From assembly GCF_900100705.1 (NCBI RefSeq), contig NZ_FNCH01000020.1, positions 1-64,000 on the forward strand: a stretch of 64,000 nucleotides of DNA, in the 5' to 3' direction. Source of the DNA: Pedobacter terrae (GTDB taxonomy: Bacteria > Bacteroidota > Bacteroidia > Sphingobacteriales > Sphingobacteriaceae). Each line of letters begins with the position of its first letter. The stretch's first letter is position 1. The translations under genes and the position numbers were made by a program. Below the pieces are notes generated by a model. The model saw only the letters and a program-made list of their open reading frames with translations. It made no database searches and was not told the DNA's origin. Positions 47,076 to 57,164 of the stretch are shown piece after piece.

Positions 47076-47891
47076 ATGGATTTTTTGCACACAATTTTAG
47101 GGGATGATATACAAGCTGGATTATTAATTATTTTGAATTTAATTGTAATCGAGAGTTTATTATCGGTTGATAATGCTGCTGTTTTGGCAACCATGGTAAT
47201 GGATCTGCCTAAATCGCAGAGAGAAAAAGCACTAAAATATGGCATTATCGGTGCTTATGTTTTCAGGGGTATCTGTTTATTCCTGGCAGCGTGGTTAGTT
47301 AAAATCTGGTGGTTAAAACCACTTGGCGGTTTATACTTATTATATCTTGCTTTCGATTATTTTAGAAAAAAGAACAATAAAAAGAATGAGGAAGAAGAGG
47401 AAGTAGATAAAAGCAAAAGCTGGATCTATAAATCTACTGTTGGCCTGGTGGGTACTTTTTGGGCTACTGTTGCCCTGGTAGAAGTGATGGACTTAGCTTT
47501 CTCTATTGATAACGTTTTTGCTGCGGTAGCCTTTACCGATCACATCTGGTTAATTTATATTGGTGTTTTTATCGGGATTCTGGCCATGCGTTTTGTGGCA
47601 CAGGCTTTTGTGAAACTAATGGAGAAATTTACCTTTTTAGAAACCGTAGCCTTTATCGTAATCGGTGTTTTAGGTATTAAACTTACTTCGTCATTATTTA
47701 CGCATTTTTATCCCGAATCGCCAATTTCTCATGCCATTGAAGGGGAACAAACAGATCTTTTTGTGTCTATTTTTACCGTAGCCATTTTCATTATACCCGT
47801 AATAACCTCTGTTTTGTTCAACTATCCCAAAAAGCACAAGAGTGATATTGTTATCTCGGAAGAAGCTGAAAAAGTATTGGATAAGTCGTAA
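47076..47891 (+). CDS. TerC-family membrane protein
   Basis: The 271-aa protein has about seven helices with the two TerC signatures IESLLSVDNAAVLA (near residue 27) and DLAFSIDNVFAAVA (near residue 142), each carrying an SxDN acidic site. TerC proteins are linked to tellurite resistance and to Mn/Ca homeostasis. A charged cytoplasmic loop (KKNNKKNEEEEEVDK) lies in the middle. It begins the ter-type gene run; the HAD gene follows after 104 bp. Confidence 0.9.
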   Translation: MDFLHTILGDDIQAGLLIILNLIVIESLLSVDNAAVLATMVMDLPKSQREKALKYGIIGAYVFRGICLFLAAWLVKIWWLKPLGGLYLLYLAFDYFRKKNNKKNEEEEEVDKSKSWIYKSTVGLVGTFWATVALVEVMDLAFSIDNVFAAVAFTDHIWLIYIGVFIGILAMRFVAQAFVKLMEKFTFLETVAFIVIGVLGIKLTSSLFTHFYPESPISHAIEGEQTDLFVSIFTVAIFIIPVITSVLFNYPKKHKSDIVISEEAEKVLDKS

Positions 47892-47995
47892 ATTTTACGG
47901 CTTGTCTGTCATAAATCTTACAATCAACCGCTTCTAATTATACAATCAAATGTGTAATATTAGAATTTATTAAACAGATTACGAAACAGGGTGCA

Positions 47996-48700
47996 ATGGC
48001 TTTTTACAAACACTACTCATTCGATCTTTGGTTAACGTTGATTAAGTCTAATCCAACTTATAAGCAGGAACGGGTACAGTATTTTTTCAGAAATTTTAAT
48101 AGCAAGCATAAAAGCATTGATGAAATTGCCATCACTTTCCGCCAGGTAGATTTGATGGTAAACGCCATTAATGAAAAAGCCGGTAAAAATGTGGATGCTG
48201 ATGAAATGTATTTAATGATCATCAGCATGATCAATGATTACGATTTCAACTTTAGTGAGGTAGACCTTGAAGTACTCGATCAGGATATGGAACAGATCGT
48301 ATTTAACCATATGCCACAACTTTACTGTACCGATTGTTTAACTGTATTGGACAAAATTAAAGATTCGGGCAAAAGCTCTACCAATATACTGAGTAACACC
48401 GGTTTTATTAAAGGTAAAACCTTAAAAAAGGTCATCGAACATTTAGGTATCGGTCAGTTTATAGATTTTCAGCTTTATTCTGATGAAGTGCGCATGTCGA
48501 AACCCAATGCTGGCTTCTTTCAGTTGATGTTAGATCGTATTGACAGAACAAAACATCCTGGATTATTGTTATCAGACGTGATCCATGTTGGAGATAATCC
48601 CCATGCCGATATCCGCGGTGCAGAAGCACTGGGGATTAATAGTATGCTGATCAATTCCAACAAATTATCTATCTTAAACCTACTCTATGATACCGTATAA
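47996..48700 (+). CDS. HAD-family hydrolase of the ter cluster
   Basis: The 234-aa protein is a haloacid dehalogenase-fold hydrolase. Motif I reads FDLWLTL, with Asp and Thr in place and the usual second Asp replaced by Trp. Motif II is LSNTG, motif III MSKPNAGFF and motif IV VGDNPHAD. The Trp suggests a dehalogenase-like or specialised phosphatase. A HAD enzyme next to a PRTase is known from ter gene neighbourhoods. Its stop overlaps the PRTase start by 14 bp. Confidence 0.85.
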   Translation: MAFYKHYSFDLWLTLIKSNPTYKQERVQYFFRNFNSKHKSIDEIAITFRQVDLMVNAINEKAGKNVDADEMYLMIISMINDYDFNFSEVDLEVLDQDMEQIVFNHMPQLYCTDCLTVLDKIKDSGKSSTNILSNTGFIKGKTLKKVIEHLGIGQFIDFQLYSDEVRMSKPNAGFFQLMLDRIDRTKHPGLLLSDVIHVGDNPHADIRGAEALGINSMLINSNKLSILNLLYDTV

Positions 48701-49523
48701 TTTCTCTCTTCACAAAATAGACAATACCGTCGATTTTGGCTTTAGTGCCGATGATTACAGTCGTTTTAAGTTTGGTGATGATCTGGTAGCCAGAGCTTTT
48801 GGAAAAGACCTCGCCGATGGTTTTATCAGGTATTACCTGGCCGATAATTTAATTGCCGGTCAGATTGTGGTGATTTCCAGCCCTTACAGTTTTATCCCTA
48901 CGGCAACTTTTGCCATGAAAAACTATTTCGTTTGCCAGCTTAACCGTTGGCTGGTCGAAAATGGTGGTTTAGTTGTACAGGAAACGAAAGTACACAGAAC
49001 CATTACCTACAAAGAAGATTATGGCGAGTTAAGTGCTGAAGAAAGACTGTCGCTCATTGGTAACGATTCATTCCATATTGATAAAGATTTTCTAACGGGT
49101 AAAACGCTGTTATTTCTGGATGATATCAGGATTACCGGAAGCCATGAGCGGATGATTTTAAAAATGGCAAAAGAGTATGGCTTAAAAAATGAAATGCATA
49201 TGCTTTATTTTGCCGAACTGGTGAATAAAAACATTCATCCCAATGTAGAGAACTTCCTGAATTACCATCAGATCAAATCAATTTTTGATCTGGAAGATAT
49301 TATTGATAGCGGCAATTTCAGGTTTAATACCCGCATTGTAAAATACATTTTAAATACGAATTCGAGCAGTTTTACCATCTTTTTAGAACGCCGGAGCGCC
49401 GATTTTATCAATCAGCTTTACGACCTGTCGTTAGGGAATAATTACCATACAATAGAAGCGTACGCTAAAAATTTACATCTTATAAAAGACTATATCAAAA
49501 ACAACAATTATAAATTAATTTAA
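48687..49523 (+). CDS. Phosphoribosyltransferase-like protein of the ter cluster
   Basis: The 278-aa protein contains the PRTase PRPP-binding motif LLFLDDIRITGSHE (about residues 152-166) with the DD pair and TGS loop. The flanking region (about 60-200) fits a type I PRTase fold, and the C-terminal 60 residues are a separate helical part (IEAYAKNLHLIKDYI). It shares a 14-bp overlap with the HAD gene, and terD follows after 2 bp, so it is tightly embedded in the operon. The nucleobase or acceptor is unknown. Confidence 0.82.
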   Translation: MIPYNFSLHKIDNTVDFGFSADDYSRFKFGDDLVARAFGKDLADGFIRYYLADNLIAGQIVVISSPYSFIPTATFAMKNYFVCQLNRWLVENGGLVVQETKVHRTITYKEDYGELSAEERLSLIGNDSFHIDKDFLTGKTLLFLDDIRITGSHERMILKMAKEYGLKNEMHMLYFAELVNKNIHPNVENFLNYHQIKSIFDLEDIIDSGNFRFNTRIVKYILNTNSSSFTIFLERRSADFINQLYDLSLGNNYHTIEAYAKNLHLIKDYIKNNNYKLI

Positions 49524-49525
49524 AT

Positions 49526-50080
49526 ATGGCTATTAATTTGCAGAAGGGGCAGCGTGAAAATATCGATGCGCCTAAATTTACAATAGGTTTAGGTTGGGAT
49601 ACCAACAGCTCTTCAACAGGTTCAGCATTCGATTTAGATGCTTCAATTTTTATATTAAACGACCAGAAAAAACTGATTTCTGACGAAAATTTTGTATTCT
49701 ACAATAACCTGGTTTCACCAGATGGTGCTGTAGAGCATACCGGTGATAATTTAACAGGTGATGGTGACGGCGATGATGAGCAGATTAAAATTGATTTAAC
49801 TAAGGCTGATGCCAAAGTAAGTGAGATCTGTGTGGTGGTAACCATTCATGATGCAGAAAGCAGAAGACAGAATTTTGGTCAGGTTAGAAATTCTTTCATC
49901 CGTATTTTCGATGCGGTAACCAATGAAGTAATTTTAAAATATGAATTAGAAGAAGATTTCTCTATTGAAACAGCTGTGGAATTCGGAAGGATTTACAAAC
50001 GTGAAGGCAAATGGAAGTTTGAAGCTGTTGGCGTAGGTATGAAGGGCGGTTTACAGGATTATTTAAACAAATATCAATAA
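49526..50080 (+). CDS. TerD-family protein, first copy
   Basis: The 184-aa protein begins MAINLQKGQR and has the TerD calcium-binding pattern, with FDLDASIF near residue 37, the Asp-rich GDNLTGDGDGDDEQ near residue 72 and SFIRIFDAVTN. TerD-type proteins bind calcium and are thought to take part in signalling or assembly with membrane partners in tellurite and stress responses. It is 2 bp after the PRTase gene and 4 bp before the second copy. Confidence 0.92.
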   Translation: MAINLQKGQRENIDAPKFTIGLGWDTNSSSTGSAFDLDASIFILNDQKKLISDENFVFYNNLVSPDGAVEHTGDNLTGDGDGDDEQIKIDLTKADAKVSEICVVVTIHDAESRRQNFGQVRNSFIRIFDAVTNEVILKYELEEDFSIETAVEFGRIYKREGKWKFEAVGVGMKGGLQDYLNKYQ

Positions 50081-50084
50081 TATT

Positions 50085-50699
50085 ATGGCAATCAATCTTC
50101 AAAAAGGACAGCGCATCAGTCTGGAAAAAAGCAATGGCAGCAAACTTCAGAATGTTTGTGTAGGTATTAACTGGGGCGCTATTGAAAAGAAAGGCCTTTT
50201 CGGTTTCGGATCATCAAAAGAAGCGGTAGATTTAGACGGAAGCTGTGCATTATACAACGAAAACAAACAGCTTTTAGAGGTAGTGTACTTTGGTAACCTT
50301 AAATCTAAAAACGGTTCGGTAAAACACAGCGGCGATGATTTAACTGGCGATATGGGTGGCGATGATGGTTTAGATAACGAGATCATCACACTTGATTTTT
50401 CACAGTTGGATGCCAATGTAAATTATGTTGCCTTTGTATTAAACAGCTTTAGAGGTCATGATTTTGGTACGATTCCTTTTGCTTCCATTCGTATTTATGA
50501 AGGCACAACAAAACGTGTAAACGAGGTTTTTGCTAAATTCGACATTGCCAACGGAGCTAATTTTGCAGGTCACGTATCAATGGTAATGGGTGTTTTTTAT
50601 AAGAAAAACGGCGAATGGAAATTTAATGCCATTGGCGAACCAACTAAAGATAGAAAATTGGAAGATACCGTTAAAACCGTGACTCAAAACTATTTATAA
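50085..50699 (+). CDS. TerD-family protein, second copy
   Basis: The 204-aa paralogue also begins MAINLQKGQR and has VDLDGSCALY, the acidic loop GDDLTGDMGGDDG and RIYEGTTKRVNEVFA. It lacks some of the first copy's acidic residues and has extra insertions (KKGLFGFGSSK). The two copies share an identical start but otherwise differ widely, so they are old paralogues. It is followed by telA after 28 bp. Confidence 0.92.
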   Translation: MAINLQKGQRISLEKSNGSKLQNVCVGINWGAIEKKGLFGFGSSKEAVDLDGSCALYNENKQLLEVVYFGNLKSKNGSVKHSGDDLTGDMGGDDGLDNEIITLDFSQLDANVNYVAFVLNSFRGHDFGTIPFASIRIYEGTTKRVNEVFAKFDIANGANFAGHVSMVMGVFYKKNGEWKFNAIGEPTKDRKLEDTVKTVTQNYL

Positions 50700-50727
50700 G
50701 CCGTAAAAGCTGGTCATAAATCAAACT

Positions 50728-51825
50728 ATGGAAACCAACCCAAACGTTACTCAGGACCTTACTCCGGTTAAACTGGATAAGGACGGAAATGTTGACCTCG
50801 AAAAAATAACAGCCGAGGAAACAACCAAATATAAGGAAATTGGAAAATCGCTAGAACCATCGGATGTAAATTCGATTCTGAATTATGGAAGCGATGCCCA
50901 AAACTCCATGGAGAAATACAGTAATGATTTTTTATCATCTGTACGTACCTACAACAGTGGCGAAGTTGGTGGTTTAATTAACGAGCTGCTAACCGAACTA
51001 AATTATATCGATGTATCTGAATTGGAACAGAGCGGCTTTAAGAGTTTTATCTCGAGGATTCCATTCTTGAAAAATTTAGTGGTTGATGTGAAGAAGCTTT
51101 TCCAGAAATATGATGTGGTGGTTAATAATATTGATAAAATTACCAACAAAATAAAAGCTGGAAGATTAAACTCAATCAAAGATAACAGCTCGCTGCAAAC
51201 CATGTTCGATAGCAACGTTGGGTATATCCACCAGATGGAAGAACTGATTATTGCCGGACAGTTAAAGTATAACGAACTGAGTATCAAACTGGCCGAAATG
51301 GAAGGTCGCCCGGCCGATTACCAGGATTATGAAATTGCCGATTTAAGGGATTTTATTAGTCGATTGGATAAAAGACTGGCCGATATGAAGATTGTACGTT
51401 TTATTATGTTGCAATCTTTAGCACAGATCCGTGTGGTGCAGAACAACAATACTTCCATTGCAGAAAAAGCACAGTCGATAGTTTCTACCACCATTCCGGT
51501 ATGGAAAAACCAATTGACTATTGCGGTTGCTTTACAAAGGCAAAAGGCCAATGTAGAGATGCAGAAGAAAATTTCGGATACCACCAATACTATTTTGCAG
51601 AAAAACGCAGAGATGCTAAAACAAAACAGTATTGATGTAGCCAAAGAGAATGAAAAAACAGTAGTATCTTTGGAAACCTTGAAACGAACCACTTCATCGC
51701 TGATTGAAACCCTTAACGAAGTGAAACAGATCCATGAAGTAGGTGCACAGAGTAGAAGAGTGTTAGATGGCGAACTTAAAACTTTGGAAGCAGAGTTAAA
51801 AAAGAACGTAACGAGGGTGAATTAA
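50728..51825 (+). CDS. TelA/KlaA-type toxic anion resistance protein
   Basis: The 365-aa, helix-rich, soluble protein belongs to the TelA family, first defined by plasmid tellurite resistance. Characteristic parts include the ISRIPFLKNLVVDVKKLFQKY region, SNVGYIHQMEELIIAG (about residues 150-170) and VQNNNTSIAEKAQSIVSTTIPVWKNQL (about 235-260). The last third is long coiled coil. It follows the TerD pair and precedes a gene I cannot assign. Confidence 0.88.
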   Translation: METNPNVTQDLTPVKLDKDGNVDLEKITAEETTKYKEIGKSLEPSDVNSILNYGSDAQNSMEKYSNDFLSSVRTYNSGEVGGLINELLTELNYIDVSELEQSGFKSFISRIPFLKNLVVDVKKLFQKYDVVVNNIDKITNKIKAGRLNSIKDNSSLQTMFDSNVGYIHQMEELIIAGQLKYNELSIKLAEMEGRPADYQDYEIADLRDFISRLDKRLADMKIVRFIMLQSLAQIRVVQNNNTSIAEKAQSIVSTTIPVWKNQLTIAVALQRQKANVEMQKKISDTTNTILQKNAEMLKQNSIDVAKENEKTVVSLETLKRTTSSLIETLNEVKQIHEVGAQSRRVLDGELKTLEAELKKNVTRVN

Positions 51826-51832
51826 TTAAAAT

Positions 51833-52795
51833 ATGGATGAATACCGTTTAAATATTCTCAAAAAATCAAGCGCAGAGATCAACCGTTTACAGTTGCTCTC
51901 TGTGTTTTTTGATGATGAGGTGATTTACAAAATTTACCTGCGGAGCCAGGTTATTCATCAACTTTTTGCCAATAATGAAGAACTGGAAATAGAAAAATTA
52001 GATCTTTTTCATCTTCAATTTACCGATAGTGTAATCGAACTGCTCAGAAAGATTAAAAAGAGCAATGAGAAAAATGTATCCCTTATCTATGATGAAATTG
52101 ATCTGAATGAAGAATTGATTGATCGAATGGCAGGGTCGCTCGTTGATCAGAAAAGTTTTCAGCAGGATAAGCAAAAACAGTCGCTTAAAATTAACTTATC
52201 GCTTCGGAAGCTTTTCAGCGTACTGTCTGATCTGAGTTCAGATTTTCCCTTTTCAAAAAACATCAACGTTTTTAGTTCCAAATATGCTAACGGTTTTTAT
52301 TATGATCTCACTACGGATCAATTTTCGAAACTGATTGATCTTCAGGATAAACAAGTATACACGAATGTTTATGCCACCATTGAGAAAAAATTAATGGGCA
52401 AACTTTGTAAGAACGATTTCCGGACCGAGTTTTATATTGGTTTAAAAGCTGGAGAACTGGTGATTGAAGTTTATAAATTTTTAGATGAAGATTATTACTA
52501 CCTGTTCTTTCCAAGCAGAAACCTATTCCTGTTTTGCGATCTCACTATTTTAAAAGACCTGGACATGACAAATAACCTTTCAGAACGGGAGCGGATTGTA
52601 CAGGAACTGCAGTATAAAAACGATAAATTAAAAAGTAACGCTGCTGTTTTAAAAACTGCCATTCCGAATGAAGTTGCCCAATTATTGGAAGATAGTTATG
52701 GTAAAATATCGGATATCAATTTCCTGAATCACCTCAATAATTTTGATGTTCAGTCGAATATTTTAAAGACGATGTTGAAGACGGATCTGTTTTAA
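51833..52795 (+). CDS. Unassigned terminal protein of the ter operon
   Basis: The 320-aa protein begins 7 bp after telA. It has no signal peptide and no membrane helix. The first 130 residues are helical and charged. The middle (about 150-240) looks like alternating strands, with LSSDFPFSKNINVFSS, ANGFYYDLTTDQFSK and FLDEDYYYLFFPSRNLF. The last 70 residues are helical with a KNDKLKSNAAVLKTAI segment and end HLNNFDVQSNILKT. I recognise no family. Position at the operon's end and native codon use suggest a dedicated partner of TelA or TerD, an inference only. Confidence 0.75.
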   Translation: MDEYRLNILKKSSAEINRLQLLSVFFDDEVIYKIYLRSQVIHQLFANNEELEIEKLDLFHLQFTDSVIELLRKIKKSNEKNVSLIYDEIDLNEELIDRMAGSLVDQKSFQQDKQKQSLKINLSLRKLFSVLSDLSSDFPFSKNINVFSSKYANGFYYDLTTDQFSKLIDLQDKQVYTNVYATIEKKLMGKLCKNDFRTEFYIGLKAGELVIEVYKFLDEDYYYLFFPSRNLFLFCDLTILKDLDMTNNLSERERIVQELQYKNDKLKSNAAVLKTAIPNEVAQLLEDSYGKISDINFLNHLNNFDVQSNILKTMLKTDLF

Positions 52796-52826: not shown

Positions 52827-52892
52827 TCGTCATGCTGAATTTATTTCAGCATCTTTACCACAATAGACCCTGAAATAAATTCAGGGTGACGA
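52827..52892. repeat. Interspersed repeat hairpin (family B)
   Basis: Arms 52827-52849 and 52870-52892 match in 21 of 23 bases (tcgtcatgctgaatttatt and its complement). The element lies between the ter operon and the convergent hydrolase gene, so it may work as a bidirectional terminator. A close copy is at 62849-62923. Confidence 0.8.
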
Positions 52893-54951: not shown

Positions 54952-55677
54952 TTAATCCGCTATATCAAGCAACTGTTTAATGGTGCCCTTGTAACTTTTA
55001 CCGATAGGAACCTCCTGACCATTTTTAAGCACAATGGTGTTGCCCTCTAAATAGTCTACATATTTTTTGTTAAGCATAAAAGATTTATGGATTCGGATGA
55101 AATCTGTTGACAACTGGTCTTCAAAACTGGCCAACGTTCTAGGTGTTAGTAGAAAATCACTGTTTTTCCAAACTTTTACATAGTTACCGAGACTTTCCAG
55201 ATATTGTATTTCGTCTATTTTGATCAGAATGTGCTTTTTGTCAACCTTGATGGCGATTTGTCTATTGTTTTTTTGCGCTGTTTTTTCAATTTCGAAAGAT
55301 TTAATCGTTTGCTTATTAAGGTTGTGCAATTCAAGTGCACGGTTAACGGCTTTTAAAAAACGGTCGAACCTGAAGGGTTTTAAAAGATAATCGCAAACGG
55401 CCAGGTCAAAACCCGCTAAAGCATATTCTTCGTACGCAGAGGTTATAATCACAAGAGGTTTATGCACTAAAGTCCTTAAAAAATCCAGACCATTTAGTTT
55501 TGGCATCCGGATATCCAGGAAAATGAGATCTACTGGTTGTTTACTTAAAAAATCTGATGCTGCTGTAGCGCGGTAACAGTTTCCAACGATGTTAATAAAA
55601 GGAATATCTTTTGCATATTCAGTAATTATACCATGTGCAAGCGGTTCATCATCTATTATCAAACAACGTAAGCTCAT
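54952..55677 (-). CDS. LytTR-family response regulator, second system
   Basis: The 241-aa protein has a receiver domain (IIDDEPLA, phospho-acceptor in FLDIRMPKLNG near residue 55, KPF) and a LytTR domain (about 135-235, KIDEIQYLESLGNYVKVW and FIRIHKSFMLN). The kinase gene's last four bases overlap its start (ATGA), so they are coexpressed. The divergent ABC/peptidase operon is the likely target. Confidence 0.9.
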   Translation of the reverse strand: MSLRCLIIDDEPLAHGIITEYAKDIPFINIVGNCYRATAASDFLSKQPVDLIFLDIRMPKLNGLDFLRTLVHKPLVIITSAYEEYALAGFDLAVCDYLLKPFRFDRFLKAVNRALELHNLNKQTIKSFEIEKTAQKNNRQIAIKVDKKHILIKIDEIQYLESLGNYVKVWKNSDFLLTPRTLASFEDQLSTDFIRIHKSFMLNKKYVDYLEGNTIVLKNGQEVPIGKSYKGTIKQLLDIAD

Positions 55678-57164
55678 GTTAGCTGGAGTTTAAGTTCTGC
55701 TTTAAAGATATGATCAATTGAAGTGATATGCAATGTATAGCGGTTAGGATAAAGTAATTCGAGTCTCTTTCTTAAATTACCAATCCCAATCCCCTTATGA
55801 TCAGTATTTTCGTTAGGATCAAAGGAATTTTCGCAAGAGAAAAAGAGAACGGTTTGGTTAGCGGTTAGCATTAGTTTCAAAGAAGCTTCGTCTTCAGCAG
55901 GTTCAATACCATGTTTAAATGCATTCTCTACAAATACAATCAGCAGAAGAGGAACGATCTCAATCTGATCATCGGTAACCTCCTTATTAAATTCAAAATG
56001 TAAGTTTTTTTGCAAACGGATTTGTTGCAATTGAATGTAATCATTAATGTAATCAATTTCCTGCGAAAGCTTAACTGATTTTTCCTGCCCTTTATAAATG
56101 GTATAGCGCATCAGTTCTGATAATTGTAAAATACTGTCGGGCGTTTTAGCTGATTTTTGCAAACTTAAAGCATAAAGGTTGTTCAACGTATTAAAGAAAA
56201 AATGAGGATTAAGTTGTTGTTTTAATAAGTCAAGTTCATGTTGCGATTTTTCCTTCTCTAAAGAAAGGATTTTGTTGTTCTGTTTGCCCCATTGCAGTGC
56301 CAAAACTACCGGTAAACTGATGAGCATAATAGCAAAGGCGCCTAATGCATTTTCAAGTTCGAATGGATTGGTTTCGAAAATGTTCCGACCGAAAACCGTA
56401 TTAATGGGTAGTGAAATTAATAATTGAGCCAATAGGGGATACAGCAAGGCAAGGGTTGTAGAAAGTGCTAACAGATAAATAAGCAGTCCTTTTTCTTTGA
56501 GGATTTTAGATACCAGTAAACGGCTATTGATCAGAAAAAGCAGGTATCCACAGAGGTACATGATTAGAAATTGCAAAAAGAAGCCTAAAAATGTTCCAAC
56601 ATTAAACCAAAGCGCTTTTAAGCTGAATTCAAAACCTACTAAACGGAAACCATTTCGTTGGTAAATGGGGTTGTCTAAACTTGAAACGGCCATTATGGAA
56701 ATGGTTGCAGCAAGTAGAATAATGGTGATGAGTACTGCATGTTCCAGGCCAATTTTTTTGATCCATTTAATATGCTTCACTTTTTTCTGGTAATAATGAT
56801 TGGCAATTAATATCATTTCGAGGGAAGTTGCTGCCAAAGCTGTTGAAATAAAAACAGTATGGCTAAGCTTCGCAATTTGCAGGTAAAATGCTAGATCGGT
56901 AAAAAGCGGAAGCAGGATAAAGAAGCAAATGCACCAGTAGGCAACGTATCGATTTCGGGTTAAGATGTTTTTTAGTGTGGCTTTAAGAAAAGAAAAAACA
57001 AGTACAGGGAGCAAACAAAAACCCAAAGCCAAAATACAGCTGGCATAGTTAAGCCAAATATTGCTGGTTAAATGGTAAGTATTAAATATGGCTATCCATA
57101 ATAACAGGCCAATATTTAGGGAAAAATCCTGGTATTTATAATTAAAGTTCTTGGTATTAAGCAT
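55674..57164 (-). CDS. LytS-type sensor histidine kinase, second system
   Basis: The 496-aa protein has about eight to nine membrane helices in its first 300 residues and a His_kinase/GHKL module. The phosphorylation motif is QQLNPHFFFNTLNNLY (His near residue 325), and the N-box is VFVENAFKHGI. The late GIGIGNLRKRLELLYP is the G-box. The multi-helix sensor suggests it detects a membrane or envelope signal. It is divergent from the ABC/aminopeptidase operon across 493 bp. Confidence 0.9.
   Translation of the reverse strand: MLNTKNFNYKYQDFSLNIGLLLWIAIFNTYHLTSNIWLNYASCILALGFCLLPVLVFSFLKATLKNILTRNRYVAYWCICFFILLPLFTDLAFYLQIAKLSHTVFISTALAATSLEMILIANHYYQKKVKHIKWIKKIGLEHAVLITIILLAATISIMAVSSLDNPIYQRNGFRLVGFEFSLKALWFNVGTFLGFFLQFLIMYLCGYLLFLINSRLLVSKILKEKGLLIYLLALSTTLALLYPLLAQLLISLPINTVFGRNIFETNPFELENALGAFAIMLISLPVVLALQWGKQNNKILSLEKEKSQHELDLLKQQLNPHFFFNTLNNLYALSLQKSAKTPDSILQLSELMRYTIYKGQEKSVKLSQEIDYINDYIQLQQIRLQKNLHFEFNKEVTDDQIEIVPLLLIVFVENAFKHGIEPAEDEASLKLMLTANQTVLFFSCENSFDPNENTDHKGIGIGNLRKRLELLYPNRYTLHITSIDHIFKAELKLQLT

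What the first reader, a model, noticed from the sequence alone, without database searches (positions are those of the whole stretch)
47076..52795. Ter-type stress operon with HAD and PRTase enzymes plus an unassigned end gene
TerC, two TerD paralogues and TelA are the known core of tellurite/stress systems. The tightly linked HAD and PRTase genes (14-bp overlap, then 2 bp to terD) look like a small biosynthetic unit making a nucleotide-like product. This kind of ter-linked biosynthetic gene set has been noted before in comparative surveys. The final gene is unrecognised, so the system's output is open.
Basis: partly seen in the sequence, partly recalled or inferred. Interest (0 to 1): 0.6.

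Follow-up and report, generated by a model that had tools for sequence, protein, structure and literature searches.

The report
Bacteroidota Ter operon with undescribed TelA partner
This is a seven-gene bacterial stress operon of a known kind (a Ter system) whose unrecognised last gene is a conserved companion of the TelA gene, and whose two enzyme genes form a linked pair also carried by many large phages.

Summary
New here, as far as my searches go: (1) endG is an unnamed family next to telA in all 62 relatives read; in 395 sampled genomes of the phylum it occurs in the same 15 as PRTase_3 (TerD: 21). Two MAG loci keep terD-terD-telA-endG without any PRTase found in the assembly, so endG belongs with TelA rather than with the enzymes. 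(2) HAD and PRTase sit together, also in phages (154 records each); of 12 such phage records that I chose, 11 also carry TerD and TelA. (3) The HAD is not a textbook phosphatase: all 73 distinct copies have Trp in place of the second catalytic Asp; the other catalytic residues are kept (one Ser-to-Cys). Best reading: HAD-PRTase makes or modifies a ribose-phosphate signal, TerD senses it, TelA with endG forms the coiled-coil output. Product and output are inferred, not shown.

The parts
47076..47891 (+). terC, YkoY-type integral membrane protein; accessory: its place varies (before HAD, after endG, or no close copy in the stretch read)
   Evidence: Pfam TerC 2.3e-56; TIGR03716 above cut-off; variable position
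47996..48700 (+). HAD-superfamily protein, REG-2-like, with motif I D-x-W-x-T (second Asp replaced by Trp)
   Evidence: Pfam HAD_2 2.8e-09; best NCBIfam match DREG-2, below its cut-off; W in 73 of 73 distinct relatives
48687..49523 (+). PRTase_3 (ComF-like phosphoribosyltransferase) with an intact DDxxITG PRPP loop
   Evidence: PF15610 4.2e-103; D145, D146, T150, G151 in 79 of 79 distinct relatives
49526..50080 (+). terD paralogue 1
   Evidence: PF02342 7.7e-72
50085..50699 (+). terD paralogue 2
   Evidence: PF02342 3.7e-38
50728..51825 (+). telA
   Evidence: PF05816 1.3e-95
51833..52795 (+). endG: 320-aa helical protein with an alpha/beta insert (about residues 134-247) and a conserved C-terminal NIL(K/R)xML motif; unnamed family, next to telA in every relative read
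   Evidence: no family above cut-off; 62 of 62 loci beside telA; AlphaFold2 pLDDT 84.3, pTM 0.53

Best explanation
The operon is a Bacteroidota form of the Ter stress/conflict system. The HAD and PRTase_3 genes are a dedicated enzyme pair that uses PRPP to make or modify a ribose-phosphate small molecule. The two TerD proteins sense it (or a metal-linked state). TelA, together with endG, forms a coiled-coil assembly that carries the output. TerC is an optional membrane component. Shown: gene content, order, linkage, PRTase active-site residues intact by sequence, the missing second Asp in the HAD, and endG's tie to telA. Inferred: the metabolite, its sensing by TerD, a physical TelA-endG complex, and the physiological output (phage or xenobiotic resistance).
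For: endG is adjacent to telA in 62 of 62 loci; all five of HAD, PRTase, terD, telA and endG are present in 59 of 62, one of the three misses (L031) being a contig edge. In a 395-genome phylum sample, endG (15 hits after dropping one fragment) and PRTase_3 (15 over cut-off) fall in the same 15 genomes, all of which hold TerD; 6 further genomes hold TerD without either. The set is patchy inside genera g1, g3 and g8 and present or absent as a block (G080 and G138; G099, G214 and G261; G025, G057 and G068 lack all three; same calls). Two loci keep terD-terD-telA-endG-terC (L041 with one more terD) without HAD-PRTase, and no PRTase rang in their assemblies while 4 of 4 control genomes rang. Pairwise distances of endG correlate highest with TelA (r 0.976), then PRTase (0.965) and HAD (0.949). 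HAD-PRTase: 154 phage records each; the genes overlap by 1-32 bp in the window and in 15 of 15 annotated phage and plasmid relatives; 11 of 12 phage records examined also hold TerD and TelA. The component scheme is in PMC7824862 section 22 (passage read).
Against: No biochemical evidence. The HAD lacks the second Asp, which argues against a simple phosphomonoesterase. HAD-PRTase also occurs without Ter genes on the record: Rhizobium phage RHph_I1_18 and two rhizobial plasmids have neither TerD nor TelA. A Hymenobacter (Bacteroidota) plasmid has the pair with TerD but no TelA and no endG, so the PRTase_3-endG link is not absolute in the phylum. endG has no phage, plasmid or virus-contig relative found, so it cannot be a general Ter part. 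The distance correlations are inflated by shared species history, the TelA-over-PRTase margin is small, and L041/L042 are MAG-type assemblies.
Confidence: 0.6

Rival explanations
1. The HAD-PRTase pair is a general nucleotide, NAD or RNA-end salvage cassette that merely travels with ter genes in some lineages.
For: It stands without Ter genes on two rhizobial plasmids and in phage RHph_I1_18; phage neighbours are annotated as macrodomain, ADP-ribosylation protein, RNA ligase, NMN adenylyltransferase/NUDIX and ribonucleotide reductases.
Against: Within the 395 sampled genomes PRTase_3 over the cut-off was never found without TerD and endG (15 of 15); 11 of 12 phage records from about four clades also carry TerD and TelA. 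The phage neighbour genes differ from clade to clade.
Confidence: 0.2
2. endG is a third enzyme or subunit of the biosynthetic unit rather than a TelA partner.
For: Same 15 genomes as PRTase_3 in the phylum sample; distances correlate with PRTase almost as well as with TelA (0.965 against 0.976).
Against: L041 and L042 keep endG with telA and no PRTase; endG sits after telA, not with the enzymes; the model is mostly long helices with no confident fold match.
Confidence: 0.12
3. The HAD is catalytically dead and acts as a regulatory partner or chaperone of the PRTase.
For: Second motif-I Asp replaced by Trp in 73 of 73 distinct copies; adjacent or overlapping genes.
Against: Nucleophile Asp, motif II Ser (72 S, 1 C), motif III Lys and the motif IV Asp pair (second one 72 of 72 readable) are kept. 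From recall, haloacid dehalogenases and phosphonatases also lack the second Asp and are active.
Confidence: 0.2
4. An ordinary metal or tellurite resistance operon with TerC as the main actor.
For: TerC, TerD and TelA are named for tellurite resistance.
Against: terC is the least fixed member; Pfam, NCBIfam and PADLOC show no metal-reducing enzyme among the seven genes.
Confidence: 0.1

Closest known systems
Ter system as summarised in PMC7824862 section 22 (after Anantharaman, Iyer and Aravind 2012, which I could not read)
   Same: PRTase plus HAD, TerD, TerC and TelA are all present
   Different: endG is not named in the passages read; no vWA (TerF/TerY) gene among the seven; the HAD lacks the second catalytic Asp
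ter genes of large phages (e.g. JohannJBalmer/Bas62, phAPEC8, CcrColossus, XaC1)
   Same: HAD-PRTase_3 pair with TerD and TelA on the record; the same D-x-W-x-T motif in the phage copies aligned
   Different: the pair lies apart from TelA (about 4 kb in Bas62, tens to over 100 kb in jumbo phages); no endG found; PRTase identity to the window about 31-35%
Other TerD loci of the phylum (e.g. G312, G284)
   Same: TerD paralogues
   Different: no PRTase_3 and no endG in the genome; neighbours read by eye as vWA-like

Membership tests
Ter system (scheme of PMC7824862) | nucleobase-type PRTase and HAD genes | tested here: met
   families and linkage; the substrate of the PRTase is not known
Ter system (scheme of PMC7824862) | TerB or TerD | tested here: met
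   two TerD
Ter system (scheme of PMC7824862) | TerC membrane component | tested here: met
   position variable among relatives
Ter system (scheme of PMC7824862) | TelA and/or TerF vWA protein | tested here: met
   TelA 1.3e-95; no vWA domain among the seven proteins
Ter system (scheme of PMC7824862) | signal metabolite and phage or xenobiotic resistance | not testable with these tools
   needs bench work
Full ATP-grasp Ter biosynthetic module (recalled) | ATPgrasp_Ter (PF15632) gene | tested here: not met
   own genome: one hit, 27.2 bits against a cut-off of 29.1, in a 954-aa frame on another contig; the model is unspecific (rings in 13 of 14 control genomes)
Classical HAD phosphomonoesterase | DxDx(T/V) motif I | tested here: not met
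   D-x-W-x-T in 73 of 73
Type I phosphoribosyltransferase | PRPP loop with paired acids and TG | tested here: met
   D145, D146, T150, G151 in 79 of 79
yybP-ykoY-controlled TerC genes (recalled) | Mn riboswitch upstream of terC | tested here: not met
   no Rfam family at gathering score in the window
FlgN (PF05130), considered for endG | match above the curated cut-off | tested here: not met
   9 of 24 members match at E<=0.1, best 2.3e-4; the window protein scores 15.8 bits against a cut-off of 30.5

The most novel reading that the evidence does not exclude
HAD-PRTase_3 is a dedicated second-messenger synthase shared by bacteria and large phages for Ter-mediated conflict. The Trp-bearing HAD does something other than phosphomonoester hydrolysis (anhydride or C-X cleavage, or phosphotransfer), giving a signal not yet described. 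endG is the Bacteroidota receptor-effector that couples the signal to TelA.
Probability: 0.18. Interest if true: 0.8.

Novelty: new variant of a known kind. Interest (0 to 1): 0.48.

Why it matters
Ter systems are widespread in bacteria, plasmids and phages, yet to my knowledge neither the signal nor the output is established. A compact gene block with one TelA companion gene and one tightly paired enzyme couple is a small, testable version. The conserved Trp in the HAD gives a concrete biochemical question, and the naturally PRTase-less loci separate sensing and output from synthesis.

Tried and rejected
FlgN for endG: weak, below the cut-off, probably shared coiled-coil character. PHROG 28381 for endG: E 0.0036 over 34 residues, no stretch passing on its own. 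SMC-hinge, F-BAR and de novo bundle matches for the endG model: Z up to 12.3, within the range the tool warns of for helical bundles; Foldseek had no hit below E 0.2. The endG alpha/beta insert folded alone (pLDDT 82.6, pTM 0.75) had no Foldseek hit below E 0.8; this does not show a new fold. endG in phages, plasmids and virus contigs: no relative (the one phage row at E 2 is in an integrase); nothing credible in the virus loci or near phage telA (best E 0.027 in a 77-aa frame). Solved structures by sequence: none for endG (best E 0.58) or for the PRTase up to E 0.1; the HAD matches only general HAD hydrolases.

Dropped before counting: G126 (37 residues, one stop, E 0.0012); G070, G180 and G109 (below the family cut-off); L031 as a true absence (contig edge); 3 of 104 HAD frames without the motif region, whose frames start at the locus edge; L050 (PRTase frame cut near the locus edge; the other 108 of 109 loci had an adjacent HAD on the same strand, many of these loci overlapping each other). 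In one search one copy has a gap at D205. The 12 phage records tested for TerD and TelA were chosen by me to span clades, out of 154; they are not a random sample and several are close relatives. The first A3 search for L041/L042 lacked a positive control and was repeated with controls. The HAD was not searched for in those two assemblies beyond the loci read.

Considered and left: a promoter search for the operon. Matches to TANNTTTG (a recalled Bacteroidota promoter element) in the window are at chance level (81 found, 92 expected).

Full report
What is there. Window 47076-52795 holds seven + strand genes: terC, HAD, PRTase_3, terD1, terD2, telA and a 320-aa gene called endG here. Families are clear for the first six and absent for endG (PHROGs). 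No Rfam element at gathering score and no tRNA is in the window.

endG is a conserved TelA companion. A scan of the genome collection gave 48 relatives, named as Pedobacter, Arcticibacter, Mucilaginibacter and other Sphingobacteriaceae/Sphingobacteriales; all 48 lie next to telA, and 45 have HAD, PRTase, terD, telA and endG together. A profile over 395 genomes of the phylum hit 16, of which one (G126) is a short fragment with a stop and was dropped; the 15 left span seven genus and four family labels, the window's own included. PRTase_3 over its cut-off occurs in the same 15 genomes; three more hits were below the cut-off. The naive chance of identical sets of 15 in 395 is about 2e-27, which ignores relatedness; the block pattern inside genera g1, g3 and g8, where relatives lack endG, PRTase_3 and TerD together, is the better argument. 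TerD occurs in 21; the 6 TerD-only genomes are G312, G184, G213, G275, G283 and G284. In 14 far loci read (28-54% endG identity) all five genes are present; in one (L113) the terD genes precede HAD-PRTase.

Natural split. L041 (a lichen Sphingobacteriaceae assembly) and L042 (a Mucilaginibacter MAG) keep terD-terD-telA-endG-terC, L041 with one more terD, with no HAD-PRTase at the locus. No PRTase rang in either assembly, while four of four control genomes rang. So endG goes with TelA. Both assemblies may be incomplete, but the loci themselves are contiguous.

endG's shape. AlphaFold2 gives long helices with an alpha/beta insert at about 134-247 (pLDDT 84.3, pTM 0.53); the insert alone gives pLDDT 82.6 and pTM 0.75. 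No confident structural relative was found, which is not proof of a new fold. The C-terminal NIL(K/R)xML stretch is nearly fixed over the family (N309 nearly invariant; I310, L311, M314 and L315 invariant in 24 sequences) and could be a docking tail (inference).

The enzyme pair. HAD sits directly upstream of the PRTase, with a 1-32 bp overlap in the window and in 15 of 15 annotated phage and plasmid relatives; several far Bacteroidota loci have a short gap instead, such as 2 bp in L114 and L116 and about 20 bp in L113. In phages the PRTase query finds 154 records and a phage HAD query finds 154, with nearly the same organism breakdown; 60 records of each were listed, so identity of the two full sets was not checked. 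Seventeen plasmid records have the PRTase. Four virus contigs have the pair, three of them with TerD beside it. Among 12 phage records examined, 11 carry both TerD and TelA on the record and RHph_I1_18 carries neither; two rhizobial plasmids carry neither; the Hymenobacter plasmid has TerD only; two virus fragments have TerD but no TelA in the fragment. The 12 fall into about four clades (Stephanstirmvirinae and like, Dolichocephalovirinae, Kleczkowskaviridae, XaC1; taxonomy lines). So the link to Ter holds across several phage clades even where the genes are apart, with rhizobial exceptions. PMC7824862 calls the Caulobacter phage Ter operons abbreviated; in the two Caulobacter records examined (CcrColossus, CcrPW) the enzyme pair is present some 24-25 kb from TelA.

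The HAD motif. Over 73 distinct copies, including phage and plasmid ones at about 23-29% identity to the window, Asp10, Thr14, Asn134, Lys169, Gly199 and Asp200 are fixed, motif II Ser is 72 S and 1 C, and Asp205 is kept in all 72 readable copies; position 12, the second motif-I Asp of HAD phosphatases, is Trp in all 73. From general HAD knowledge (recalled), the second Asp is the general acid/base for phosphomonoester hydrolysis and is missing in haloacid dehalogenases, phosphonatases and P-type ATPases. So this HAD probably acts on a bond with a good leaving group, or is regulatory. The PRTase keeps its PRPP loop in 79 of 79 distinct copies.

Known and new. PMC7824862 (passages read) states the Ter parts, with PRTase and HAD as the signal-making pair, TerB/TerD as possible sensors and TelA as sub-membrane. 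It names a relatively complete Ter system in Acinetobacter phage ME3 and abbreviated ones in Caulobacter phages. PMC5512222 (passages read) repeats the nucleotide proposal for two Ter PRTases. PMC9503650 (passages read) covers NAD/ADPr systems and HADs in phages; no Ter mention appeared in the passages seen. The 2012 source paper was not held. I found no description of endG or of the Trp-bearing HAD in the listings of searches; none of these was aimed at the HAD motif, and subscription papers are mostly not covered, so this is a weak absence.

Verdict. A real and intact instance of a known kind of system, with an undescribed TelA-linked subunit and an unusual, tightly paired HAD. Function remains inferred.

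Noticed in passing
window 52828-52892: A REP-like inverted repeat (seen by eye) follows endG; its 27-bp arm has 77 copies (44 forward, 33 reverse, up to 3 mismatches) in the genome against 0 for the reversed control.
   Followed up: partly
L128 (own genome, contig C49, 130000-147000): A second TerD locus with two terD genes beside a 547-aa protein that looks tubulin-like by eye, a 1302-aa and a 426-aa protein; a similar-looking locus lies in another genome, L130.
   Followed up: no
L127 6560-7108 (own genome, contig C22): A lone terD gene, 76% identical to terD1, with no other window ter gene matching in the 13 kb read.
   Followed up: no
L039 8001-8961 (Pedobacter agri): The endG match is split into two pieces one base apart, suggesting a frameshift or sequencing error in that copy.
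   Followed up: no
L140 6776-7510 and L144 5834-6406: Phage HAD-PRTase pairs have neighbours annotated as macrodomain (Bas62) or NMN adenylyltransferase/NUDIX (RHph_Y65), hinting at ADP-ribose/NAD chemistry.
   Followed up: no
MG065656.1 and MG065650.1 (phages collection): Two of the five Campylobacter phage records with HAD-PRTase; the HAD of MG065656.1 is 96% identical to that of an E. coli phage, so its host label may be wrong.
   Followed up: no
window 54952-57164: A LytTR-type response regulator and a sensor kinase (by eye) lie downstream on the other strand.
   Followed up: no
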